Both the position numbers and the translations under genes were made by a program. The notes under the pieces were generated by a model, which was given only the letters and a program-made list of their open reading frames with translations, had not been told where the DNA came from and did not search any database. From Rhodococcus sp. W8901 (lineage in GTDB: Bacteria; Actinomycetota; Actinomycetes; Mycobacteriales; Mycobacteriaceae): a stretch of DNA of 64,000 nt. Positions 13,329 through 23,786 of the stretch are shown here, piece by piece (the first letter of the stretch is position 1; each line of letters begins with the position of its first letter). Location: contig NZ_CP054690.1 in the NCBI RefSeq assembly GCF_013348805.1, positions 1,240,001 to 1,304,000 of the forward strand. The letters are read 5' to 3'.

Positions 13329-13760
13329 GTGACATCGGATACTCGCGCCCTGGCCAGCGACCTGTCCTTAGCGGTTGTGCGTCTCACGCGCCACCTGCGG
13401 GGACGGCGTGCGGAGGCCCAGGTCTCGCTGACGCAGCTGTCGGCGCTCGCCACCCTCGCCGCCGAGGGGTCGATGACGCCGGGCGCTCTGGCCGCGCGCG
13501 AGAAGGTCCAGCCGCCGTCGATGACCCGGGTCATCGCGTCGCTCGCCGACCTCGGACTGGTCGATCGCACACCGCATCCCACCGACGGTCGGCAGATCAT
13601 CGTCTCGCTCTCCGATGCCGGTCACGCCCTCATCGAGGGCGAGACCCAGGCGCGCGAGGCGTGGATGACCGAGAAGCTGTCGGGCCTCGACGACGAGCAG
13701 ATCGAAACCCTGCGCAACGCCGTCACCATCATCTCCGGTCTGGTCTCCGAGAACGGCTGA
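13329..13760 (+). CDS. MarR-family transcriptional regulator (Rv0880-like)
   Basis: 143 residues, same length as Rv0880. The winged helix is clear: VSLTQLSALATLAAEGSMTP, then EKVQPPSMTRVIASLADLG (recognition helix) and the wing RTPHPTDGRQIIVSLSDAG. The GTG at 13329 gives VTSDTRALASDLSLAVVRLT, matching the mycobacterial start. It follows the NCS2 permease. The ligand and targets are unknown. In the H37Rv order the next gene would be the rRNA methyltransferase Rv0881, which here is displaced by more than 9 kb. Confidence 0.88.
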   Translation: MTSDTRALASDLSLAVVRLTRHLRGRRAEAQVSLTQLSALATLAAEGSMTPGALAAREKVQPPSMTRVIASLADLGLVDRTPHPTDGRQIIVSLSDAGHALIEGETQAREAWMTEKLSGLDDEQIETLRNAVTIISGLVSENG

Positions 13761-13813
13761 CTCGACCGATTGCGGCCCCGAAGTCGTTCACGCACAGCCT
13801 GATCGGGTCCGCG

Positions 13814-14827
13814 TCATCGCGAAGGTGATGCGGCGCTCGGTATCTTGTCGAGGTGTTGATCGGCGCGGGGCTCCACCGAGACGGTCCGCGCTTCCAGTGT
13901 CGTCTCGCAGTGATCGCACACGAGCCGCGGCACGAACGGCCTCCCGCACCCAGTGTGTGTGAAGACGATCGCCTCGCCCTCGGGTGCAGGAAACCAGTGC
14001 TGTCCCCACGTGATCATGCACAACACCACGGGGAAAAAGGCTCGACCCTTCTCGGTCAGGTGGTAGGTCACCCAGTCCGTACGGGCGGTGCTGGGCGATT
14101 CGCGAAGGACACCGAGTTCGAGGAACGTCCGTAGTCGATCCGCCACAATCGTGGGTGACGCCTGCATCCGCTCTGCGAACTCGCTGTAGCGCTGCGCCCC
14201 GAAGAACGCCGCTCCGAGCATCGCCGCGGACCACCGATTGCCGAGCAACTCCATGGTGTGCGGTAGTACTCGCGGCGGCCGGGCCGCGCCGCTGGACCGC
14301 CGCCGACTCGACGCCGCGGGCACGCTGCGGGTCCAGCCGCCACTGGGGCCCATCTCGGCGACAACGTCGCGGGCGCTGGCCGGACGACCGCACGCGGCGC
14401 AGTGCGTTACCGGTGTGAACTGGTGTCCACAAGGGGAGTGCCGCATGCTCGGCAGAATGCCCTCGTCCGGTGCCCACTGGAGTTCCCACGACCACACCGA
14501 GAGCAGAATCGGCCACACGGCGTGCCCGCACTGGGTGCGCCGGTACTCGTAACGCGCGGGTCTCTCCTGGTAGCAGACCCGATCGAACAGTCCGGCCTCC
14601 GTGAGCGCGGCCAGTCGGGCCGACAGGACCGCGTGCGAGATCCCGCCCACCGACATCCAGTCGCGGTACCGCAGTGCGCCTTGGAACGAATGGCGGAGAA
14701 TCCACAGGTTCCATTCGTCGCCGAGCAGACCGAGCGTCACCGCGATCGCGTTGTCACCACCCGGTGCGAGCATGCGCCCGGCGGTCGGAGCGGTCTGCGC
14801 CGCGCCGGAGGCATGTTCGTCGGACAT
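13814..14827 (-). CDS. Two-module HxlR transcriptional regulator with repeated His/Cys metal motif
   Basis: 337 residues made of two tandem HxlR-type winged-helix modules. Module 1 (about 25-150): LLGDEWNLWILRHSFQGALR then GGISHAVLSARLAALTEAG. Module 2 (about 187-310): LLGNRWSAAMLGAAFFGAQR then SPTIVADRLRTFLELG. Each module ends with the same putative zinc site: H130-x2-C133-x9-C143-x2-C146 and H291-x2-C294-x9-C304-x2-C307. A linker rich in Ser/Arg (165-185) joins them. HxlR proteins normally dimerise, so this looks like a covalent pseudo-dimer. It starts 8 bases after the carotenoid-oxygenase gene and is the last gene of the thiolase-oxygenase operon, so it probably controls that operon. Confidence 0.88.
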   Translation of the reverse strand: MSDEHASGAAQTAPTAGRMLAPGGDNAIAVTLGLLGDEWNLWILRHSFQGALRYRDWMSVGGISHAVLSARLAALTEAGLFDRVCYQERPARYEYRRTQCGHAVWPILLSVWSWELQWAPDEGILPSMRHSPCGHQFTPVTHCAACGRPASARDVVAEMGPSGGWTRSVPAASSRRRSSGAARPPRVLPHTMELLGNRWSAAMLGAAFFGAQRYSEFAERMQASPTIVADRLRTFLELGVLRESPSTARTDWVTYHLTEKGRAFFPVVLCMITWGQHWFPAPEGEAIVFTHTGCGRPFVPRLVCDHCETTLEARTVSVEPRADQHLDKIPSAASPSR

Positions 14828-14835
14828 CCCACGAA

Positions 14836-16368
14836 CTATAGTCCGGGACGGTCCAGTCCCACCGCGTCCGTCGGGCTGTCCGCCGTACGCCAACGGGGGA
14901 GCGCCGACCCCGGCGCCCACGTCGAATGCGTGCCGCTCGAGATCCGTTCGGGCAGGCGGATCCGCGCGATCGGTCCGTCGGCGACGCGCGCGGCGTCGAA
15001 CACGAGGCACTCGGAGATGTCCCGGTTGACGTCCGAGGTAATGGTCACCAGGTAGCCGTCGTCCTCGGACGTCGACCCGATCCGCGGGGCCATGACGGTC
15101 TCGCTGCCGAACACGCCCTCCCCGAACGCGAAGTGTTCCTCGTTCCCCGTGACGGTGTCGTGCTTGACCAGGCCGTTGAACAGGAACCAGCCCGGAAGCC
15201 CGGTCGCCGCGTAGGTGTAGCGGTGACTGCGCCCCGCATGCGCGGGGTTGATCATGCCGAACTCCGTCACCGTCTCCGAAAGACGTTCCTCCCGAACCTC
15301 TCCCGTGCGCATGTTCAGCCGCCATCGGTGCAGGTGCGTGCCCATGCGGTCGAGCGCGAGGAAGCGGAACATCCGCTGGTAGGGTCCGCCGTCTCCGGTG
15401 TCTTCGGGCTCCGGATGCTCCTGGTGGAAGCCTTCGAGGATGATCTCGTCGCCGCTCTCGTACGCGTTGGTCCAGTGCAGGACGTACGTCGGGTCCGCCT
15501 CGAACCACCGGATCTGATCCGAGTTTCCGCGGCGTGGGATCACGCCCAGTCGTAGCGGGACGTCCGGATGGAACCGGGAGACGTACTTGCCCACCGCGAG
15601 GGCCTCCGGAACCCAGAACAGGGGGCAGTCGTTGAGGATCGCGTAGTTGTCGGTGAACGCCATGTCGTGCGGCAGGCGCGGACCCGGCAACTCGATGTCG
15701 ACGTAGTGCACGAGGCGGTCGTCGGCGTCGACCACGCCGTAATGCATGTACGGAGCATCGGTGCCGTAGTTGAAGAACAACAACTCGCCGGTGCGTTCGT
15801 CGACCTTGGGATGCGCCGAGATGCCCAGGGCCGATGGGAAGTCGCCGTGCCACGTGGCCTTCCCCAGGGTCTCGAGCGTCGTCGGATCGAGCCGGTAGAG
15901 GTCGCCGCACTGCCAGAAACTGGTCTGGGCGACGCCGCCGTGGACCACGACATCGGTGCTCGACGCATCCTTCATCCGACCCCGGGCGCCCCAGCCGTCC
16001 TGCCGGATCGACTTCTCCGGCCGCTCGGCAATGCCCGCCCACAGCGGGCCACCGGCCTCCTGCTCGGCGAGGAATCCGTCGGTCTTGACGAAACGGTTGC
16101 GGTAGAAAGCCTTTCCGTCGCGGAAGCCGACGACGTGAATCATGCCGTCACCGTCGAAGGGGTGGTACCGGCCCTCCAAGGCCGGATGCGCCGGGTTCTC
16201 GGTGTTGCGGAGGTAGACGCCGTCGAGGTCGCTCGGCAACTCGCCCACCACCTCGAGATCGTCGGCGCTGCGCTCGACATGTTGGGGGCGCCACGCCCCC
16301 GTGCGGTACGGATGGTCGTCGTCGGCCGGCAGCGTCGTCAGGGCGCGCCCGAGTACCTCGATCTCCAT
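14836..16368 (-). CDS. Carotenoid/stilbene cleavage oxygenase family protein
   Basis: 510 residues, the usual size of the RPE65/carotenoid cleavage oxygenase family (PF03055), a seven-bladed propeller around a non-haem Fe(II). The four iron-ligand histidines can be assigned: H186 (GISAHPKVDE), H234 (LPHDMAFTDNYA), H298 (YVLHWTNAYESGDE) and H481 (SSGTHSTWAPG). The early motif VYLRNTENPAHP...YHPFDGDGMIH is also typical. The family splits a C=C bond of carotenoids, apocarotenoids or lignostilbenes into two carbonyls; sequence alone does not tell which. The RBS AGGAGGAACCAC lies before the ATG. It is sandwiched in one operon between a thiolase (10 bases upstream) and the HxlR regulator. Confidence 0.92.
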   Translation of the reverse strand: MEIEVLGRALTTLPADDDHPYRTGAWRPQHVERSADDLEVVGELPSDLDGVYLRNTENPAHPALEGRYHPFDGDGMIHVVGFRDGKAFYRNRFVKTDGFLAEQEAGGPLWAGIAERPEKSIRQDGWGARGRMKDASSTDVVVHGGVAQTSFWQCGDLYRLDPTTLETLGKATWHGDFPSALGISAHPKVDERTGELLFFNYGTDAPYMHYGVVDADDRLVHYVDIELPGPRLPHDMAFTDNYAILNDCPLFWVPEALAVGKYVSRFHPDVPLRLGVIPRRGNSDQIRWFEADPTYVLHWTNAYESGDEIILEGFHQEHPEPEDTGDGGPYQRMFRFLALDRMGTHLHRWRLNMRTGEVREERLSETVTEFGMINPAHAGRSHRYTYAATGLPGWFLFNGLVKHDTVTGNEEHFAFGEGVFGSETVMAPRIGSTSEDDGYLVTITSDVNRDISECLVFDAARVADGPIARIRLPERISSGTHSTWAPGSALPRWRTADSPTDAVGLDRPGL

Positions 16369-16378
16369 GTGGTTCCTC

Positions 16379-17602
16379 CTACTGTCCGATCACGAAACTG
16401 GCTGTCGTTGCGGTGCTTCCGCCGAAGTTCAACATTGCGGCGCGGCGCGCGTCGGGCACCTGGTTCGCGCCCGCCCGGCCGGTCACCTGGCGGTGGCAGT
16501 CGAGCAGCATACGAATTCCGGTGGCGCCCACCGGATGGCCGACGCCGAGCAGGCCGCCGCTCGGGTTCACGGGGATTCGGCCGCCGATCTCGAGGTCGCC
16601 GTTCTCGACGGCGCGCCAGCTCTCGCCGGGCGGCGTGATCCCGAAATGATCGATGGCCAGGTACTCGCTGACGGTGAAGCAGTCGTGGGTCTCGATCAGA
16701 TCGAGGGCGTCGACACCGTCGATCCCCGCGCGGCCGAACGTATCCCGGATCGTAGCCCGCACGTGGGGAGCCACGTAGGGGTCGTCGGCGCTGCATGAGA
16801 GCTTGTCCTCGAGTGACAGCCCCACGGTCCGGTGCCCCCAGCCCAGGATGCGGGACTGGTTCGACGTCGCCCCGCCGGAGCGGAGCACGGGGTGGTCCGC
16901 GCGGACCAGGACCACTCCGGCGGCGCCGTCGGTGAGGGGTCCGCAGTCGGCCTTCCGCAGCCGGCCCTCCACCGGCGGGTTGGCCACGAGGTCGTCGGTG
17001 AACGACGCCTCGGTCCGGTCCCAGCCGCGGGTCTGGGCCAGCGGATTGCGGGCCGCGTTGCGGGCATTGAGTTCCGCGATCGACCACAGGTGGCGTTCGT
17101 TCAGGCCGAAGCGCCGCTCGTACTCGTCGGCGATCTTTCCGAACATGTAGGGCCACATGAATTTTGCGTCGGATCCCTCGTGGCCTACCCATGCCGCGGC
17201 GCCCATGTGCTGCGCACCCAGGTCGCCGGGAACGGTCTTCTCGAGTTCGACGCCGACGACCAGCGCGCAGTCGTACCTGCCGGACTCGAGATCTGCCATT
17301 GCGGCGAGGAGTGCAAGTGACCCCGACGCGCAGGCGCCCTCGTGGCGGGTTGCGGGTGCGCCCCACAATCCGGGCACGACCGAGGCCGGCATCGCGCCGA
17401 GGTGGCCCTGGCCGGTGAAGAGCTGCCCGAATGCGTTGCCGACGTGCACGACGTCGATGTCGGAGGGGGTGACTCCCGCATCCGCGAGCGTGCCCTCCAC
17501 GACCTCTCGGGTCAGGTCTGCGACATCGAGACCCTCCTTCGTCAGGTTGCGGGCGAAATCTGTCTGGTAGCCACCGATCACTCTGATCGCGTCTGTGTCC
17601 AT
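16379..17602 (-). CDS. Thiolase family protein (SCP2-thiolase-like)
   Basis: 407 residues. Nucleophile C91 lies in HEGACASGSLALLAA. Instead of the NEAF motif it has HDCF (H306-F309, ETHDCFTVSEY), and the base histidine H356 lies in GGLLGVGHPVGATG; these mark the SCP-x/SCP2 thiolase group. The C-terminal motif is LNFGGSTATT, with Ser instead of the usual second catalytic cysteine region (CxG), as in other members of this group. It should cleave a branched or cyclic 3-ketoacyl-CoA, though some homologues act as lyase or scaffold partners. First gene of the operon with the oxygenase; divergent from the LLM oxidoreductase operon with a shared promoter region of 103 bases. Confidence 0.9.
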   Translation of the reverse strand: MDTDAIRVIGGYQTDFARNLTKEGLDVADLTREVVEGTLADAGVTPSDIDVVHVGNAFGQLFTGQGHLGAMPASVVPGLWGAPATRHEGACASGSLALLAAMADLESGRYDCALVVGVELEKTVPGDLGAQHMGAAAWVGHEGSDAKFMWPYMFGKIADEYERRFGLNERHLWSIAELNARNAARNPLAQTRGWDRTEASFTDDLVANPPVEGRLRKADCGPLTDGAAGVVLVRADHPVLRSGGATSNQSRILGWGHRTVGLSLEDKLSCSADDPYVAPHVRATIRDTFGRAGIDGVDALDLIETHDCFTVSEYLAIDHFGITPPGESWRAVENGDLEIGGRIPVNPSGGLLGVGHPVGATGIRMLLDCHRQVTGRAGANQVPDARRAAMLNFGGSTATTASFVIGQ

Positions 17603-17705
17603 GTCGGCTGTTGTCTCCTCGGGTCTTGCGGTTCCATGCGCGTCAGACTACAACTAACAGAGTGATGAAGGCCACTCATTCTTTCGAAGTGAGGATGACG
17701 ACGCG

Positions 17706-18713
17706 ATGAAGACCTCGGAGCCGCGACTGAGCGTGAGCCTCCCGTACTGGCAGGACCGCCCGCCGCTCGATGCGCTGGCCGTCGCCGACGAAACCGCCCG
17801 CCTGGGATTCGACCGTCTCTGGGTCGGCGAGATGGCGACCTTCGATGCCTTCGCGCTCGCCACGGCGATCGGCGCCAGGGTTCCGGACCTGCCGCTCTGC
17901 GTCGGACCACTGGCGGTGGACGTCCGTACGCCGGTGGCGATCGCACTCGGCGCGGCCAGCGTCGCCGCGCTGACGGGCGCGCGTGTCGATCTGGCGATCG
18001 GCACGTCCAGCACGGTGGTCGTCGAGGGATGGCACGGTCGTACGAGGCTCAGTCCCGCAATCCATCTGGAGGAGACGGCCCGCATCGTCCGGCAGGTTGC
18101 CGCGGGGCGGAAGGCGGACTTCGACGGTCGTGTCGAGCGTGCCCGCGGGTTCCGGCTCAGGTTGCCGGCCACCGACCCGGCGCTCGTCATCGCGGCCTTC
18201 GGCCCGCAGGCGCTCGCTGTCGCCGCCCGCGAGGCGGATGGTGTGGTGCTCAATCTCGTTACACCGCAGCAGGTGTCGCGGTGCGTATCCGTCGTACGTG
18301 CGGCGGCGGAGTCGGCCGGCCGGCCCTGTCCGCGAGTCTCGGTGTGGGTCACGGCCGCGGTGGACCCCAGTGCCGCGGACCTCGAGTCGTTCCGCCGCGC
18401 TGTCGTCGGCTATCTCGCGGCCCCCGGGTACGCCGAGATGTTCGCCGACGCCGGCTTCGCCACCGCGGTCGAGATCGCGCGTAGTGGAGCAACTCCTAAA
18501 CAGATCTACGGTGCCGTCACCGACGACCTCGCAGCCGTGATCGGCGCCTTCGGAGACGCCGGCGCCGTGGCTCGACGTCTCGCCGCGTACCGAGACTCGG
18601 GTGCCGACGAGATCGTGGTGGTGCCCGCGACCTCGGCCGACGACCCGGGCGGAGCCCGGACGCTCGACGTCGTGGCGCGTGCGTGCGCCCCTGCCGCCGA
18701 GATCCTCGCGTGA
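17706..18713 (+). CDS. LLM-class flavin/F420-dependent oxidoreductase
   Basis: 335 residues, TIM-barrel luciferase-like monooxygenase family (PF00296). Recognisable blocks are TARLGFDRLWVGEM near the N-terminus, ARVDLAIGTSS, RLPATDPALVIAAFGPQAL and GVVLNLVTPQQV. In mycolate actinobacteria most such proteins use coenzyme F420, but no motif here distinguishes F420 from FMN. It is the first gene of an operon whose next gene overlaps it (GTGA at 18710-18713) and lies divergent to the thiolase/oxygenase operon. A role in oxidising or reducing an aldehyde, alcohol or ketone after oxidative cleavage is possible but not shown. Confidence 0.87.
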   Translation: MKTSEPRLSVSLPYWQDRPPLDALAVADETARLGFDRLWVGEMATFDAFALATAIGARVPDLPLCVGPLAVDVRTPVAIALGAASVAALTGARVDLAIGTSSTVVVEGWHGRTRLSPAIHLEETARIVRQVAAGRKADFDGRVERARGFRLRLPATDPALVIAAFGPQALAVAAREADGVVLNLVTPQQVSRCVSVVRAAAESAGRPCPRVSVWVTAAVDPSAADLESFRRAVVGYLAAPGYAEMFADAGFATAVEIARSGATPKQIYGAVTDDLAAVIGAFGDAGAVARRLAAYRDSGADEIVVVPATSADDPGGARTLDVVARACAPAAEILA

Positions 18714-19894
18714 GCCGGGCGCTGGTGTTCGACGCCGTCCGCCTGCCGCGCGGGCGGGTACGGCGCGGCGGCGGCACGCTGGCGGAGATACCGCCGCACG
18801 TTCTGTTCGCGCACCTGCTGCGCGCGCTGGAACTGCGCGGCCTCGACCCCCAGCGGGTCGACGACGTCGTGGTCGGGATCGGCACCGTCACCGGCGAGCA
18901 GGCAGGCAACCTCGCGCGCGGCGCTGCGCTGTACACGGGCTGGCCCGACGCGGTCGGTGGTTCGGTCGTGACGCGCCTGTGCTGCTCGGGGCTCGAGGCA
19001 CTCGGCACCGCCGCGGCGAAGGTCGTCGCAGGGCACGCCGACGTGATCGTTGCCGGCGGCGTCGAGTCGATGTCGAGGGTGCCGATGCTCTCCGACGCCC
19101 CCGCGATCGCGACGGACGGTGAACTCGGTGAGCGGACCGGCTTCGTCACGATCGGTGTCTCCGCCGATGCGACCGCGACGGTGCACGGATTCACTCGCGA
19201 TCAGCTCGACGTCTACGCCGTGGAGTCGCACCGGCGCGCGTCGTCGGCGCCGTCGTCGGAGTCCGTGGTGCCGGTGCGTCGTGGTGACGAGGTGATCCTG
19301 TCGGTCGACGAGGGTGCCCGCCACGACGCGAGTGCGGCACAGTTCGCGGCTCTGCCGGCATTGTTCGGGGACGACCCGGCCTGGGGGCTGGTGCAGCGCC
19401 GACTGCCCGAGATGCAGCCGCCCACCGAGGGTTTGCACTCCATCGCGACGGCGCCGCAACTCGCGGACGGCGCGTCGGCGGTCGTGATCGGGAGCCCCGG
19501 TGCGGGGCCGATGCGCGGTCGTCGGCCGGTCGCCGAGATCGTCGCCGTCTCGCACCGCGCCGTCCGCTCGCCGCTGCTCGATGCTCCGGTCGACGCCGCG
19601 CGAGATGCGTTGCGCCGATCAGGAATCGGTGCGCACGATCTGGACGTCGTCGAGGCCAACGAATCGTTCGCGGTGAGCCCGTTGCTGCTGACACGGGAGT
19701 TGGACCTCGATCCCGCGCGGGTCAATCCCGTCGGCGGGGCGCTCGCCGTCGGGCACCCGCTCGGTGCGACGGGCGGCAACCTGCTGGTGTCGGCGTTGGA
19801 CGCGTTGCGCCGCGTCGACGGCGAACACGCTCTGATCACGATCCCGGCGGCGCTGGGCCTCGGCTCCGCCCTGGTCGTGCGTCGCCTCCGATGA
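18710..19894 (+). CDS. Thiolase-like acetyl-CoA acyltransferase lacking the second catalytic cysteine
   Basis: 394 residues, thiolase fold. Nucleophile C91 in RLCCSGLEALGTAAAK; NESF (317-320) in place of NEAF; H349 in GGALAVGHPLGATGGN. The C-terminal block that normally reads CxGGGxG is IPAALGLGSALVV (from 378), without any cysteine, so the usual acid/base residue is missing. The covering loop region (180-245) is also shortened compared with bacterial FadA. It may be a degenerate thiolase or one using another residue as base. The GTG start overlaps the stop of the LLM gene. Co-transcribed with the acyl-CoA synthetase 52 bases downstream. Confidence 0.85.
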   Translation: MSRALVFDAVRLPRGRVRRGGGTLAEIPPHVLFAHLLRALELRGLDPQRVDDVVVGIGTVTGEQAGNLARGAALYTGWPDAVGGSVVTRLCCSGLEALGTAAAKVVAGHADVIVAGGVESMSRVPMLSDAPAIATDGELGERTGFVTIGVSADATATVHGFTRDQLDVYAVESHRRASSAPSSESVVPVRRGDEVILSVDEGARHDASAAQFAALPALFGDDPAWGLVQRRLPEMQPPTEGLHSIATAPQLADGASAVVIGSPGAGPMRGRRPVAEIVAVSHRAVRSPLLDAPVDAARDALRRSGIGAHDLDVVEANESFAVSPLLLTRELDLDPARVNPVGGALAVGHPLGATGGNLLVSALDALRRVDGEHALITIPAALGLGSALVVRRLR

Positions 19895-19946
19895 CGAACA
19901 TCCCACATTCCAGACCCGTTCCCCCGCTCAGTCGAGGAAGGTAGCC

Positions 19947-21698
19947 ATGCCCCGAGAGTTAACCGCCACAACACTTTCCGGATCGAGTAGTCGCGGCGCC
20001 GTGCTGTGCCATTCGGAGAGCAAGATCCGCGACTACGTCGAGAAGGGGTGGTGGCGGACCACCACGCTGCTCGACGCGTTCGACGACTGGGTCGCCACTC
20101 GACCGCACGAGGACGCGGTGTCCGATCCGGTGAACCTGCCCGCCCTCACCGGCGCCGTGCCGGAGACCGTGACGTGGACCCGGATGGGGGAACGCGTGGA
20201 CGATATCGCGGCACGACTGTACGAGAACGGGATCCGGCAGGGCGACGTCGTGGTGGTGCTGCTGCCCAACACGGTGTCGCTCGTGGCGACCTACCTTGCC
20301 CTGTGGCGGCTCGGGGCGGTTGCGAGCCCGGCCCCGGTCGCGTACCGGCAGCACGAGCTGTCGAACATCTGCCGTGCGACGGGGGCGGTGGCCATCGTGA
20401 CGGTGGGCCGGCTCACGGACCGCGACCTCGCGGCCGAGGCTCTCGAGCTCGTCGACTCGGGCGTCGGCCTGGAGACGGTGTTCGCGTTCGGGCCGGATGC
20501 CGACGTGCGCGCAGTGCCGATGGACCCAGAAGTGAACGACGCCGCGAAGGCGCAGGCCCGCAGCTACATCGACGATCTGCACGTCACGATCGGCGACCGG
20601 ATCACGATCTGCTGGACCAGTGGGACCGAGGCCGCGCCGAAGGGTGTGCCCCGGTGTCACGCAGACTGGTTCGCGAGCGGGCAAGCCGCCCAGGACGGGC
20701 TCGAGACCGACACGTCGTCGGTGATCCTGAACCCGTTTCCGATGGTCAACATGGCGGGCTTCGCCGGCGCGTTCCTGCCCTGGCTGCTCGGCGGCGGTCA
20801 CCTCGTTCAGCATCAGCCGCTCGACCTGCCCGTCTTCCTGTCCCAGATCGAGCGGCACCGCGTCACCCATACTGCGATGCCTCCGGCGATCCTGACGATG
20901 CTGCTGCAGCGCGACGAGCTCCGCGACTCGGTCGATCTGACATCCCTGCAGCGCGTAGGTTCGGGTGGTGCGCCGCTGCCACCCGCCGTGGTGCGTCGGT
21001 GGCAGGAAGAGTTCGGCATCGAGGTCCTCAACTTCTTCGGTTCGAACGAGGGTGTGTGCCTGCTCGGCGCACCCTCCGACATTCCGGATCCGACGGTGCG
21101 CGCCCGTCACCTGCCGAACTACGGTGCACCGGGTAAGGAATGGGCAACGCGGGTCGCGAAGATGACGGCGGTCCGACTGGTGGATCCGGTCTCGGGTGCC
21201 GATGTGCACGCGGTCGGCGAGCGCGGTGAACTACGCCTCGTGGGGCCGACCGTGTTCGGTGGATACCTCGAAGGCACCGCTACCTCGAGCCCGTTCGACG
21301 ACCAGGGCTACCTCTGTAGCGGAGACGTGTTCGAGTTGGGCGGCACCGACGGGGAATACCTCGAGTTCGTCGACCGGATCAAGGAGATCATCATCCGTGG
21401 CGGCATGAACATCGCCCCCGCCGAGATCGAGGGACTGCTCTTCGAACATCCGGCCGTCGGCGACGTCGCGGTCGTCGGGTATCCCGACGAGGTCCTGGGA
21501 GAGAAGTGCTGCGCCGTAGTGGTGCCGGCCGGCGCGTCCGACGTGTCTCTCGCCGATCTTGTCGAACACCTACGTTCCCACCAGGTCGCCTCGTTCAAGC
21601 TGCCGGAGCGACTCGAGATCGTCGCGAGCATCCCTCGGAACCCCGTCGGCAAGATACTGCGCCGAGATCTGCGCGACAGGCTGCAGTCGAGGACGTGA
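19947..21698 (+). CDS. Acyl-CoA synthetase, ANL superfamily
   Basis: 583 residues. Adenylation motifs: P-loop WTSGTEAAPKGVPRCH (about residue 225), FFGSNEG (A5), GELRLVGPTVFGGYL (A7 region), YLCSGDVF and DRIKEIIIRGGMNIAPAEIE (hinge, A8), and the catalytic lysine in PRNPVGKILRRDL near the C-terminus. It activates a carboxylic acid to its acyl-CoA through an AMP ester. The unusual, long N-terminus (HSESKIRDYVEKGWWRTTTLLDA...) resembles cyclohexanecarboxylate/aromatic acid ligases rather than fatty-acid ligases. RBS GAGGAAGGTAGCC. Third gene of the plus-strand operon, likely loading the acid produced after oxidative cleavage. Confidence 0.9.
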   Translation: MPRELTATTLSGSSSRGAVLCHSESKIRDYVEKGWWRTTTLLDAFDDWVATRPHEDAVSDPVNLPALTGAVPETVTWTRMGERVDDIAARLYENGIRQGDVVVVLLPNTVSLVATYLALWRLGAVASPAPVAYRQHELSNICRATGAVAIVTVGRLTDRDLAAEALELVDSGVGLETVFAFGPDADVRAVPMDPEVNDAAKAQARSYIDDLHVTIGDRITICWTSGTEAAPKGVPRCHADWFASGQAAQDGLETDTSSVILNPFPMVNMAGFAGAFLPWLLGGGHLVQHQPLDLPVFLSQIERHRVTHTAMPPAILTMLLQRDELRDSVDLTSLQRVGSGGAPLPPAVVRRWQEEFGIEVLNFFGSNEGVCLLGAPSDIPDPTVRARHLPNYGAPGKEWATRVAKMTAVRLVDPVSGADVHAVGERGELRLVGPTVFGGYLEGTATSSPFDDQGYLCSGDVFELGGTDGEYLEFVDRIKEIIIRGGMNIAPAEIEGLLFEHPAVGDVAVVGYPDEVLGEKCCAVVVPAGASDVSLADLVEHLRSHQVASFKLPERLEIVASIPRNPVGKILRRDLRDRLQSRT

Positions 21699-21720
21699 GC
21701 TGCCCGCCGACCGCCCCCTT

Positions 21721-22272
21721 CTACGTCCGCCGCTCGACCGCCTTCGCCCGTGCCGGGAACACCGTGTAGCTCAGGGCGATGACGCCCCAGATCCCGAGTA
21801 CGACGGTGAGGGTGTCGATCCAGTCGGACAGGGCTGCGGTGCGGGTCGGGTCGTCGACCATCGCGATCGCCGCGGACAGCAATCCGCACGCGATGCCCCA
21901 CGCGATCACGGCCTTTCCGAACTCGCGCCACTCGCGGATCGCCCGGCCCGCGCCGTGCCGCGGCGGCTTCACCGGGGCCGGCCCGCCGGCGAACCGGTAC
22001 GCGAATCGGGCGTCGGCCCAGCGGATGATGCTGTGCCCGAACGCCACCGAGAAGCCGATGTAGGCGGCCGCCAGGCCGTGACTCCACGACGCCGCACTGC
22101 CGCTGTGCAGGTCGATCGTGGTGGCGACGAGGAGCACTACGTCGACCAGCGGTGCGCCGATGAGTAGCGCGGCACCCAGGGCGGGGCGGCGCAGCAGGTA
22201 GCGGGCGACGAGGCCAGCGCTGAGGAACACCCAGAAGAGGATCTCGCACACGACGATCAGTTGGACGATCAT
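21721..22272 (-). CDS. Multi-pass membrane protein of unknown function
   Basis: 183 residues with about five or six hydrophobic helices (LIVVCEILFWVFLSAGLVAR, LGAALLIGAPLVDVVLLVAT, HGLAAAYIGFSVAFGHSII, FGKAVIAWGIACGLLSAAIA and VVLGIWGVIALSYTVFPA). It resembles uncharacterised YmcC-type membrane proteins. It is divergent from a TetR regulator, with a large dyad in the 70 bases between them, so it is very likely that regulator's target. No substrate can be proposed. Confidence 0.75.
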   Translation of the reverse strand: MIVQLIVVCEILFWVFLSAGLVARYLLRRPALGAALLIGAPLVDVVLLVATTIDLHSGSAASWSHGLAAAYIGFSVAFGHSIIRWADARFAYRFAGGPAPVKPPRHGAGRAIREWREFGKAVIAWGIACGLLSAAIAMVDDPTRTAALSDWIDTLTVVLGIWGVIALSYTVFPARAKAVERRT

Positions 22273-22291
22273 GCTCGACCCCGTTTCTAGT

Positions 22292-22328
22292 ACGACTGTG
22301 TTAGTTGTTCGAAAGCTAGCACAGTCGT
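22292..22328. promoter_or_regulatory. Operator-like dyad between membrane protein and TetR genes
   Basis: Arms ACGACTGTGTTAG (22292-22304) and CTAGCACAGTCGT (22316-22328) are inverted repeats with a single mismatch, separated by 11 bases centred on TTCGAA. In addition GTGTTAGTT occurs as a direct repeat at 22298-22306 and 22327-22335. The dyad lies in the 70-base divergent region, overlapping where both promoters should be, as expected for a TetR operator. Confidence 0.7.
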
Positions 22329-22342
22329 GTTAGTTTTGCGAT

Positions 22343-22948
22343 GTGGTGAAGAGGTCGAGCCCCGAATGCAGACGCGAGGAGATCGCCGACGCCGTGCTGC
22401 GCGTGATCCGCCGCAACGGCATCGGCGCGGCCAGCGTGCGAACCGTCGCCGACGAGGCGGGCATGTCGACCGGGTCGCTCCGGCACTTCTTCGGCACCCA
22501 GTCCGAACTGCTGCTCTTCGCGATGGAACTCGTCACCAAACGGGTCTACGACCGCATCGCCGGGATCGAGTTCAGTGGGGATCTGCGGGCCGACGTGCGC
22601 GTTCTGGCCGAGCAGTTCGTCCCCCTCGACGACGACCGTCGCGGCGAGATGGAGGTGTGGCAGGCGTTCACCGTCGCCGCCCAGGCCGATCCCGCGCTCG
22701 CCGAGGTGCGCGACCGCTCCGACTTCGCGGTGTACGAGGGCTTCCTGGGAGCCACTCGGTTGCTCGCGGAGGCCGGGGTGCTCGCGGCGTCCGCGGTCGA
22801 GGTCGAGGCGATGCGGATGCACGCCCTGGTGGACGGCCTCGCGGCACACGGCCTCAACCACCCCCACCGGATCGGTCCCGACCAGATCCACGCCGTCCTC
22901 GACGCACACTTCGCCGCGCTGTTCGCGGCGGGCGGGAGCGCCCGCTAG
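22343..22948 (+). CDS. TetR/AcrR-family transcriptional regulator
   Basis: 201 residues. Helix-turn-helix: IGAASVRTVADEAGMSTGSL then RHFFGTQSELLLFAME, the classical TetR recognition region. The C-terminal ligand domain resembles the BetI-like TetR_C_6 group (DDRRGEMEVWQAFTVAAQADP). Two GTG codons are adjacent (22343, 22346) and either could start. It is divergent from the membrane protein and flanks a dyad that it probably binds. It closes the accessory island; the next gene, a TrmH-like methyltransferase, returns to the conserved core order. Confidence 0.88.
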   Translation: MVKRSSPECRREEIADAVLRVIRRNGIGAASVRTVADEAGMSTGSLRHFFGTQSELLLFAMELVTKRVYDRIAGIEFSGDLRADVRVLAEQFVPLDDDRRGEMEVWQAFTVAAQADPALAEVRDRSDFAVYEGFLGATRLLAEAGVLAASAVEVEAMRMHALVDGLAAHGLNHPHRIGPDQIHAVLDAHFAALFAAGGSAR

Positions 22949-22979
22949 CCGTCGACCACCCATACGGCACGATGGATCC

Positions 22980-23786
22980 GTGGTTCACGTCATCGACATC
23001 GCAGACCCCGCCGATCCCCGGCTGGACGACTTCCGAGACCTCAACTCGTCGGATCGTCGGCCGGACCTGCCCGGGGGCAAGGGGCTGGTGATCGCCGAGG
23101 GTGTGCTGGTGGTCCAGCGGATGCTTGCGTCCCGGTACGCGCCGATCGGCCTGCTGGGTGTGGACCGCCGGCTCGGCGAGCTGTCCGCGGACCTCGAGGG
23201 CGTGGACGTGCCGTTCTACCGAACCACGGCCGACGTGATGGCCGAGGTGGTGGGCTTCCATCTCAACCGGGGTGTGCTCGCTGCGGCGCACCGGCCGCCT
23301 CCGCTCGACGTCGAGGACGCACTGCGCGACGCGCGGACGGTCGCGGTGCTCGAGGGCGTCAACGACCACGAGAACATCGGCTCGATGTTCCGCAACGCCG
23401 CCGGCCTGGGTGTGGACGCGATCCTGTTCGGTGCCGCCGTCGCCGACCCGCTCTACCGCCGCGCGGTACGGGTGTCGATGGGGCACGTGCTGCGCGTACC
23501 GTTCGCGCAGGTCCCCGAGTGGCCGCGTGGGCTGAACATTTTGCGCGACAAGGGCTTCCAGTTGATCTCGCTCACCCCCGATCCTGCAGCGGTGCCACTG
23601 GCCGAGGCGATGACGGGGGAGAAGGTGGCGGTGCTGCTCGGAGCGGAGGGCCCCGGCCTCACCGAGCACGCGATGCGCGTCACCGACGTGCGCGCCCGCA
23701 TCCCGATGGCGCCGGGCACCGACTCGCTCAACGTCGCGACCGCCGCTGCGATGGCGTTCTACGAGCGCATCCGGACCGGCTCGTGA
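22980..23786 (+). CDS. SPOUT/TrmH-family RNA 2'-O-methyltransferase (Rv0881-like)
   Basis: 268 residues. The C-terminal knotted SPOUT domain shows all three motifs: GVNDHENIGSMFRNAAGLG (motif 1), LLGAEGPGLTEHAM (motif 2) and IPMAPGTDSLNVATAAAMAF (motif 3). The N-terminal ~100 residues form the L30e-like RNA-recognition domain (VIAEGVLVVQRMLAS). It methylates a ribose in rRNA or tRNA using SAM; the target is not predictable. GTG start at 22980. Its stop overlaps the start of the DUF2537 gene (GTGA). Confidence 0.92.
   Translation: MVHVIDIADPADPRLDDFRDLNSSDRRPDLPGGKGLVIAEGVLVVQRMLASRYAPIGLLGVDRRLGELSADLEGVDVPFYRTTADVMAEVVGFHLNRGVLAAAHRPPPLDVEDALRDARTVAVLEGVNDHENIGSMFRNAAGLGVDAILFGAAVADPLYRRAVRVSMGHVLRVPFAQVPEWPRGLNILRDKGFQLISLTPDPAAVPLAEAMTGEKVAVLLGAEGPGLTEHAMRVTDVRARIPMAPGTDSLNVATAAAMAFYERIRTGS

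What the first reader, a model, noticed from the sequence alone, without database searches (positions are those of the whole stretch)
13814..22272. Candidate undescribed catabolic island built around a carotenoid/stilbene oxygenase
Between the Rv0880-like MarR and the Rv0881-like methyltransferase, which are neighbours in H37Rv as I recall it, lie two divergent operons: thiolase-oxygenase-HxlR and LLM oxidoreductase-thiolase-acyl-CoA synthetase, followed by a membrane protein. The oxygenase keeps all four iron histidines (186, 234, 298, 481). Cleavage of a C=C bond, oxidation of the aldehyde, CoA activation and thiolysis could form one pathway for a stilbenoid, apocarotenoid or isoprenoid. I know of no described pathway with this gene set, and the substrate is unknown.
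Basis: partly seen in the sequence, partly recalled or inferred. Interest (0 to 1): 0.75.

Follow-up and report, generated by a model that had tools for sequence, protein, structure and literature searches.

The report
Conserved oxygenase-thiolase degradation gene cluster
The six genes look like one jointly controlled degradation pathway, found in many actinobacteria and mycobacteria and on some proteobacterial plasmids, that probably splits a carbon-carbon double bond of an unknown organic acid; its substrate and its odd thiolase still have to be tested.

Summary
Window 13814-21698 carries two divergent operons: thlA-CCO-hxlR (minus) and LLM-thlB-ACS (plus). All four iron histidines are kept. 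Homologues do co-occur: among 301 family genomes, 64 of the 65 with thlA also have the oxygenase. The set recurs in shuffled orders across actinobacterial families and, with ALDH and SDR, on Cupriavidus and Sphingopyxis plasmids. An element, CTACAACTANNAGAGT, lies between the divergent operons and occurs exactly once in this 5.7 Mb genome. Its presence tracks that of the regulator, a fusion of two HxlR domains. In two genomes of other families it also precedes importer, LLM and ligase genes. So this looks like one regulon.

Corrections: the membrane protein is not part of the island; a TetR gene was missed; the oxygenase lacks the stilbene-type Lys/Tyr pair (roles recalled) and reaches no characterised NCBIfam cut-off; the second thiolase lacks its C-terminal catalytic Cys in 49 of 49 distinct homologues. 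The core pair is probably the uncharacterised Rv0913c-Rv0914c; 192 of 248 Mycobacterium genomes have the oxygenase. The substrate is unknown.

The parts
13814..14827 (-). hxlR2: regulator made of two fused HxlR domains (337 aa), each half with a Cys-rich tail; proposed repressor
   Evidence: Pfam HxlR, 2 stretches; halves self-similar in 114 of 114 homologues, 105 distinct; presence tracks the element
14836..16368 (-). RPE65/carotenoid-oxygenase family oxygenase (CCO), 510 aa, probably Rv0913c-type
   Evidence: PF03055 409.7 bits; four His invariant in 22 of 22; clade support 0.979
16379..17602 (-). thlA: SCP2-type thiolase with all catalytic motifs, probably Rv0914c-type
   Evidence: PRK06289 624.6 bits, cut-off 375; GACASG, HDCF and GHP kept
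17626..17654 (+). candidate promoter TTGCGG-N17-TACAAC of the LLM-thlB-ACS operon
   Evidence: present in the window and 6 congener islands; consensus likeness only
17648..17663 (.). proposed operator CTACAACTAACAGAGT between the divergent operons
17706..18713 (+). LLM-class (F420-family) oxidoreductase, 335 aa
   Evidence: TIGR03841 349.8 bits; LLM relatives follow the same element in two genomes of other families
18710..19894 (+). thlB: FadA-type thiolase homologue without the C-terminal catalytic Cys
   Evidence: PF00108/PF02803; CxG Cys absent in 60 of 60 rows, 49 of 49 distinct
20001..21698 (+). acyl/aryl-CoA synthetase (AMP-binding, 565 aa; alternative start 19947)
   Evidence: PF00501/PF13193; nearest solved chains are aryl-acid AMP ligases and 4-coumarate CoA ligases

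Best explanation
This is an inducible catabolic module for an unsaturated carboxylic acid taken from outside the cell. Shown by sequence: oxygenase and SCP2-type thiolase belong together; a fused double-HxlR regulator goes with a private element over the divergent promoters; the same element precedes importer, LLM and ligase genes in two relatives. Inferred: without ligand the double HxlR blocks both promoters and the substrate or its CoA ester releases it; the ligase (ACS) makes CoA thioesters; the iron oxygenase splits a C=C bond into two carbonyls; an aldehyde is oxidised by an ALDH (not in the window island, inside the cluster in proteobacteria) and re-activated; a flavin-type enzyme (LLM here, an NMO/FabK-like one elsewhere) reduces a conjugated C=C; ThlA thiolyses the resulting, probably methyl-branched, 3-ketoacyl-CoA. 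ThlB does a related step that does not need the second Cys. Most likely substrate class, weakly supported: a cyclic isoprenoid or apocarotenoid-type acid.
For: Phylogenetic profile: 64 of 65 thlA genomes have the CCO (42-48% or 66-100% identity); 7 of 71 CCO genomes lack thlA; n = 301. In the 65 of 80 named loci with at least 6 kb on both sides: thlA within 8 kb in 54, HxlR in 51, thlB in 25, ACS in 23. Element: upstream of thlA in 72 of 117 distinct genes against 0 of 117 shuffles, of thlB in 25 of 52 against 0; in 69 of 87 loci with HxlR against 2 of 28 without; 15 of 18 sites in 13 genomes lie at module genes by my reading of positions. Cross-phylum recurrence with ALDH, SDR, NMO, ACS and double HxlR. 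ThlA keeps all thiolase motifs.
Against: No substrate, induction or enzyme data. In many Mycobacterium loci only CCO and thlA remain, without HxlR, ACS or thlB nearby, so the full set is not obligatory. 18 of 87 loci with HxlR lack the element, and 2 of the 13 genomes searched have no site. Element totals do not clearly exceed the reversed-pattern control: 4 against 24 in the own genome at up to 2 mismatches, 18 against 14 in 13 genomes at up to 1; the case rests on position. Three of 18 sites lie inside unrelated genes. The isoprenoid guess rests on recalled family habits. LLM is absent from the 6 other islands of the genus.
Confidence: 0.6

Rival explanations
1. The oxygenase cleaves aryl alkenes (stilbenes, isoeugenol- or vinylphenol-like acids) and the island is a phenylpropanoid or lignin-fragment pathway.
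For: The ligase is nearest to salicyl/dihydroxybenzoyl-AMP ligases and 4-coumarate CoA ligases among solved chains; the second cluster has a PaaN-like ALDH (541 bits, cut-off 579); a Rieske oxygenase lies beside the Sphingopyxis copy.
Against: The Lys and Tyr that bind 4-hydroxystilbenes (roles recalled) are absent at the aligned positions; NCBIfam lignostilbene models score 239 and 188 bits against cut-offs 800 and 650; in the tree it does not group with LSD-I or 5v2d (three references, midpoint root).
Confidence: 0.2
2. The module degrades the plant hormone abscisic acid or a close apocarotenoid acid.
For: Rhodococcus sp. P1Y splits the abscisic acid side chain to dehydrovomifoliol and then rhodococcal acid, enzymes unknown (PMC7996341 and PMC9599779, passages); Rhodococcus sp. 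P-2 carries the large cluster with a liv-type importer, CoA ligase and a DUF1295 steroid-reductase-like protein (L202).
Against: Of the candidate C2 products only acetate, not glycolate or glyoxylate, supported growth of P1Y, which fits C2 removal better than oxygenase cleavage of C2=C3; 192 of 248 Mycobacterium genomes carry the CCO, too wide for a plant hormone alone; the P1Y genome was not examined.
Confidence: 0.1
3. The oxygenase recycles the cell's own carotenoids and the neighbours are general fatty-acid genes.
For: It belongs to the carotenoid-oxygenase family; its best solved-chain match is a carotenoid 9,10-dioxygenase.
Against: M. tuberculosis has Rv0913c but no carotenogenic genes (PMC5133782, passage); importer genes behind the same element and a private regulator point to an outside substrate.
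Confidence: 0.1
4. The gene set is a loose collection of catabolic genes sharing a variable site between marR and the SpoU gene.
For: The site is variable in the genus: of the 7 genomes without the island, five show memb behind an intervening stretch (an ORF of 405-413 aa in the three that were read, MFS-like by eye in the two printed), one has memb-tetR only, one nothing; LLM is present only in the window's island among the genus members.
Against: The same set recurs at other sites across families and phyla and shares one element within the actinobacteria.
Confidence: 0.04

Closest known systems
Rv0913c-Rv0914c of Mycobacterium tuberculosis (putative carotenoid oxygenase; lipid carrier protein or keto acyl-CoA thiolase)
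   Same: Same two protein families side by side; Mycobacterium loci have CCO about 65-70% and thlA about 60-65% identical to the window, in the gene order that I recall for Rv0906-Rv0914c
   Different: Uncharacterised; one type of Mycobacterium locus has no HxlR, ACS or thlB beside the pair; H37Rv itself was not fetched
8'-apocarotenoid 13,14-dioxygenase type (Rv0654/MtCCO is the recalled mycobacterial example)
   Same: Family, four His
   Different: The window protein scores 231.8 bits against a cut-off of 675; Rv0654 was not compared directly
Lignostilbene dioxygenase LSD-I (6ojr)
   Same: Family, four His, two of three second-shell Glu (roles recalled)
   Different: Stilbene-binding Lys/Tyr and the third Glu absent
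SCP2-type thiolases (3zbg, 6hsj)
   Same: ThlA keeps Cys, HDCF and GHP
   Different: Substrate unknown
FadA-type thiolases (3svk, Rv0859)
   Same: ThlB sequence family and nucleophile Cys
   Different: C-terminal CxG Cys absent in 49 of 49 distinct homologues
HxlR-family repressors
   Same: HxlR domain
   Different: Two domains fused in one chain and an asymmetric element; the single-domain habit of the family is recalled

Membership tests
Carotenoid cleavage oxygenase / RPE65 family | PF03055 above gathering score | tested here: met
   409.7 bits, cut-off 27
Carotenoid cleavage oxygenase / RPE65 family | four iron-binding His | tested here: met
   H186, H234, H298, H481 invariant in 22 of 22
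Carotenoid cleavage oxygenase / RPE65 family | three second-shell Glu (role recalled) | tested here: not met
   E369 and E423 kept; no Glu in the TSFWQCGDL stretch where LSD-I has MKED; several relatives shown lack a Glu there too, so this lowers only the claim of a standard family member
Carotenoid cleavage oxygenase / RPE65 family | oxidative C=C cleavage | not testable with these tools
   needs enzyme assay
Lignostilbene dioxygenase | NCBIfam NF053778 / NF053780 cut-offs | tested here: not met
   239.1 of 800; 187.6 of 650
Lignostilbene dioxygenase | Lys and Tyr for the 4-hydroxyl (role recalled) | tested here: not met
8'-apocarotenoid 13,14-dioxygenase | NCBIfam NF052295 cut-off | tested here: not met
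   231.8 of 675
Rv0913c-Rv0914c pair | orthology and adjacency in Mycobacterium | tested here: inconclusive
   Mycobacterium orthologues mostly adjacent to thlA; H37Rv not fetched, Rv gene order recalled
SCP2-type thiolase (ThlA) | nucleophile Cys, HDCF, GHP | tested here: met
   distinct ThlA: Cys 117 of 117, GHP 117 of 117, HDCF 115 of 117, the other two HDCM
Canonical thiolase (ThlB) | C-terminal CxG catalytic Cys | tested here: not met
   absent in 60 of 60 rows with that stretch, 61 aligned; 49 of 49 distinct; also in 2 of 2 proteobacterial copies; ThlC of the second-cluster type keeps it in 3 of 3
F420-dependent LLM oxidoreductase (TIGR03841) | model cut-off | tested here: met
   349.8 of 213.65
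F420-dependent LLM oxidoreductase (TIGR03841) | F420 rather than FMN use | not testable with these tools
   cofactor assay
HxlR regulator | PF01638 domain | tested here: met
   108.7 bits, 2 stretches
HxlR regulator | binds the element and represses | tested here: inconclusive
   association of element with regulator, Fisher p = 6e-12 over related loci; no binding data

The most novel reading that the evidence does not exclude
The oxygenase and the SCP2-type thiolase are a two-enzyme solution to the methyl-branch block of beta-oxidation: on a 3-methyl-3-enoyl-CoA (isoprenoid) the oxygenase splits the 3,4 double bond and so unmasks a 3-ketoacyl-CoA, which ThlA cleaves directly; ThlB has left thiolase chemistry and become another C-C lyase. 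The pair would be the retained core in mycobacteria, including Rv0913c-Rv0914c.
Probability: 0.12. Interest if true: 0.85.

Novelty: new variant of a known kind. Interest (0 to 1): 0.6.

Why it matters
It ties an uncharacterised oxygenase, found in 192 of 248 Mycobacterium genomes examined, to a fixed thiolase partner, a dedicated regulator with a predicted operator and, in relatives, an importer and CoA ligases. That makes the function testable: the operator can be used to find an inducer, and the inducer points to the substrate. A thiolase homologue that has consistently lost its second catalytic Cys is a concrete lead for other C-C bond chemistry.

Tried and rejected
Stilbene cleavage: weakened by the missing Lys/Tyr pair and low model scores. 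Membrane protein as part of the island: rejected, since G009 has marR-memb-tetR-spoU without the island and five further genomes of the genus have memb near marR without it. M. massiliense island MmGI-1 as a relative: the one carotenoid oxygenase named in that paper lies outside the island (PMC4263727, passages). Nocardioides simplex steroid paper: no mention of carotenoid, HxlR or DUF1295 in its main text (PMC7807495, passages). Abscisic acid as sole explanation: kept only as a rival. A wider regulon in the window's own genome: only one site with at most 1 mismatch and three with 2. Composition as a sign of recent transfer: 2-kb windows over the island have G+C 0.68-0.72 inside a window range of 0.65-0.75. 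Deep placement in the tree is not claimed (three reference chains, midpoint root). Passages on Rv0913c/Rv0914c in PMC10468300, PMC11754781, PMC9363015, PMC8669151 and PMC10407107 gave annotations or list entries, no tested function. PMC12509608 was read whole and PMC12349427 in passages: no abscisic acid genes named. The results of searches were seen as listings only.
Full report
WHAT IS THERE. The window (G000, 5.71 Mb, one contig) holds, between a MarR gene that passes the NCBIfam Rv0880 cut-off and a SpoU-family methylase, two divergent gene runs: thlA-CCO-hxlR on the minus strand (17602 down to 13814, gaps of 10 and 8 bases) and LLM-thlB-ACS on the plus strand (17706-21698, LLM and thlB overlap by 4 bases).

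ISLAND BORDERS. 7 of 14 genomes of the genus, the window's included, have a CCO at 83-100% identity, and in all 7 it sits next to marR. Of the other 7, one has marR directly before the SpoU gene, one has marR-memb-tetR-spoU, and five show memb after an intervening stretch; three of these five were read and hold an ORF of 405-413 aa there, MFS-like by eye in the two that were printed. So the island proper is 13814-21698; memb and tetR look like a separate accessory pair. LLM was not found in the 6 other islands of the genus.

HOMOLOGUES CO-OCCUR. In 301 genomes of the family, 58 have a CCO at 66-100% identity and 23 one at 42-48% (71 genomes in all); 65 have thlA at E <= 1e-110; 64 of these 65 have the CCO; the exception is a partial gene at a contig end. 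Seven CCO genomes lack thlA at that threshold. In the 65 of 80 named loci with enough flank, thlA lies within 8 kb in 54, HxlR in 51, thlB in 25, ACS in 23, DUF1295 in 17, NMO in 11, SDR1 in 11, LLM in 3; 4 of 65 have none of these eight. Those 80 loci are the best of a capped list of 582 confirmed matches. Orders differ among genera, which argues for selection on linkage. The orthologue clade is monophyletic for the tips used (31 of 31, support 0.979). Orthologues at 57-75% identity occur in other families of the order and of the phylum. In Mycobacterium, 192 of 248 genomes have a match at E <= 1e-150; the genus label rests on DNA matches to named Mycobacterium loci.

OUTSIDE THE PHYLUM. Six plasmid records of Cupriavidus (4), Polaromonas and Sphingopyxis carry CCOs at 42-52% identity. 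Of the four opened, Cupriavidus basilensis pRK1-2 and Sphingopyxis granuli pRW412b have beside it a ligase (39-42% to module ligases), an NMO enzyme (48-51%), a thiolase (44% to ThlB), a double HxlR (24-33%), SDR, ALDH and alpha/beta hydrolase; Cupriavidus necator C39 has CCO (52%) followed by thlA (56%), with a second CCO and a ligase; Polaromonas shows CCO, hydrolases and ALDH/SDR pieces but no ThlA, ThlB, NMO or HxlR match. The element was not found in these plasmid loci at up to 2 mismatches. The second cluster of the window's own genome (L109) also holds a CCO (45%), thlA, ACS, thlB, two HxlR genes, an ALDH near PaaN and a hotdog thioesterase.

REGULATION. The HxlR protein is two fused HxlR domains; halves are self-similar in 114 of 114 homologues, 105 distinct. 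A sequence CTACAACTANNAGAGT stands between thlA and its divergent neighbour. At up to 3 of 14 mismatches it occurs within 250 bp upstream of 72 of 117 distinct thlA and 25 of 52 thlB genes, 0 in shuffles; less often for SDR1 (5 of 19), LLM (2 of 11), CCO (13 of 146), ACS (8 of 70) and HxlR (5 of 102) (with other shuffles, one search had 3 chance hits for CCO and 1 for ACS); for NMO, DUF1295, DapB and SDR2 none was seen. In the own genome there is one exact site, window 17648-17663, none with 1 mismatch and three with 2. In 13 other genomes there are 18 sites with at most 1 mismatch, in 11 genomes; by position I place 10 at thlA and 5 at other module genes, and the remaining three (G008, G092, G094) lie inside unrelated genes. 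The reversed-pattern control gives 24 against 4 and 14 against 18, so position, not number, carries the argument. In two genomes of other families (G682, G698) the element stands between SnoaL and liv-type ABC genes (with ligases further along the same run), before LLM, between thlA and SDR1, and once before an unlinked ligase. Over 115 loci with distinct ThlA the element is present in 69 of 87 with HxlR and 2 of 28 without; of the Mycobacterium loci without HxlR only L097 has it, at 3 mismatches. Of the 18 loci with HxlR but no element, ten have regulators only 30-36% identical to the window's; the other eight I cannot explain. In the window and 6 congener islands the element overlaps the -10 of TTGCGG-N17-TACAAC. 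A repressor over both promoters is my inference.

ENZYMES. The oxygenase keeps the four His and two of the three second-shell Glu; the third, and the Lys and Tyr that contact 4-hydroxystilbenes (roles recalled), are absent. It reaches none of the three NCBIfam subfamily cut-offs it matches. ThlA is a complete SCP2-type thiolase; such enzymes often handle 2-methyl-branched substrates (recalled). ThlB has the nucleophile Cys but no C-terminal catalytic Cys in 49 of 49 distinct sequences; one subtype also lost the Asn of NEAF and the Pro of GHP. ThlC in the second-cluster type keeps the Cys (3 of 3), so the loss is not a habit of all thiolases there. The LLM protein belongs to an F420 family.

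HOW IT PROBABLY WORKS. A carboxylic acid enters (liv-type importer in relatives), is activated by ACS, a C=C is split by CCO, the aldehyde is oxidised and re-activated, a conjugated C=C is reduced by LLM or NMO, and ThlA removes acyl units. Only linkage, regulation pattern and motif content are shown; every reaction step is inferred. A cyclic isoprenoid or apocarotenoid-type acid is my first guess for the substrate, at about one in three.

KNOWN OR NEW. Rv0913c is named as a putative carotenoid oxygenase in a review (PMC5133782, passage) and Rv0914c as a lipid carrier protein or keto acyl-CoA thiolase in a table (PMC8669151, passage). A search for either name found 8 papers, of which I saw passages of six. 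No open paper held together the terms carotenoid oxygenase, HxlR, thiolase and gene cluster; carotenoid cleavage oxygenase, Rhodococcus and acyl-CoA synthetase; carotenoid oxygenase, thiolase and Actinobacteria; or carotenoid oxygenase, nitronate monooxygenase and gene cluster. A looser search listed 15 of 24 papers, of which I read passages of two. Subscription papers were not covered.

Noticed in passing
L109 (G000:C1:5503000-5522900): The same genome has a second, diverged cluster with CCO, thlA, ACS, thlB, two HxlR genes, PaaN-like ALDH, hotdog thioesterase and a canonical thiolase, with a variant of the element (ACTACAAGATGCAGAGT).
   Followed up: partly
L286 and L288 (plasmids of Cupriavidus basilensis and Sphingopyxis granuli): Plasmid-borne versions of the module in another phylum, with ALDH, alpha/beta hydrolase and, in Sphingopyxis, a Rieske oxygenase.
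   Followed up: partly
ThlB homologues in loci L055-L238: FadA-type thiolase homologues in this module lack the C-terminal catalytic Cys in every copy with that stretch, in two subtypes.
   Followed up: partly
L080, L155, L158, L173, L181, L202: A larger version adds SDRs, DUF1295 (steroid-reductase-like), TesB, DapB-like reductase, SnoaL or VOC proteins and, in several, liv-type ABC importer genes.
   Followed up: partly
window 13760-22980 against L244-L247, L251, L254, L255: The gap between marR and the SpoU gene is a variable site: the CCO island, an MFS-like gene before memb, memb-tetR only, or nothing.
   Followed up: yes
L060 (G003): CCO and hxlR are read in pieces in a 79% complete assembly; possibly sequencing error, left as is.
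   Followed up: no
L095, L152, L157, L159, L220, L223, L225, L231: Loci with a fairly similar double HxlR but no recognisable element upstream of thlA.
   Followed up: no
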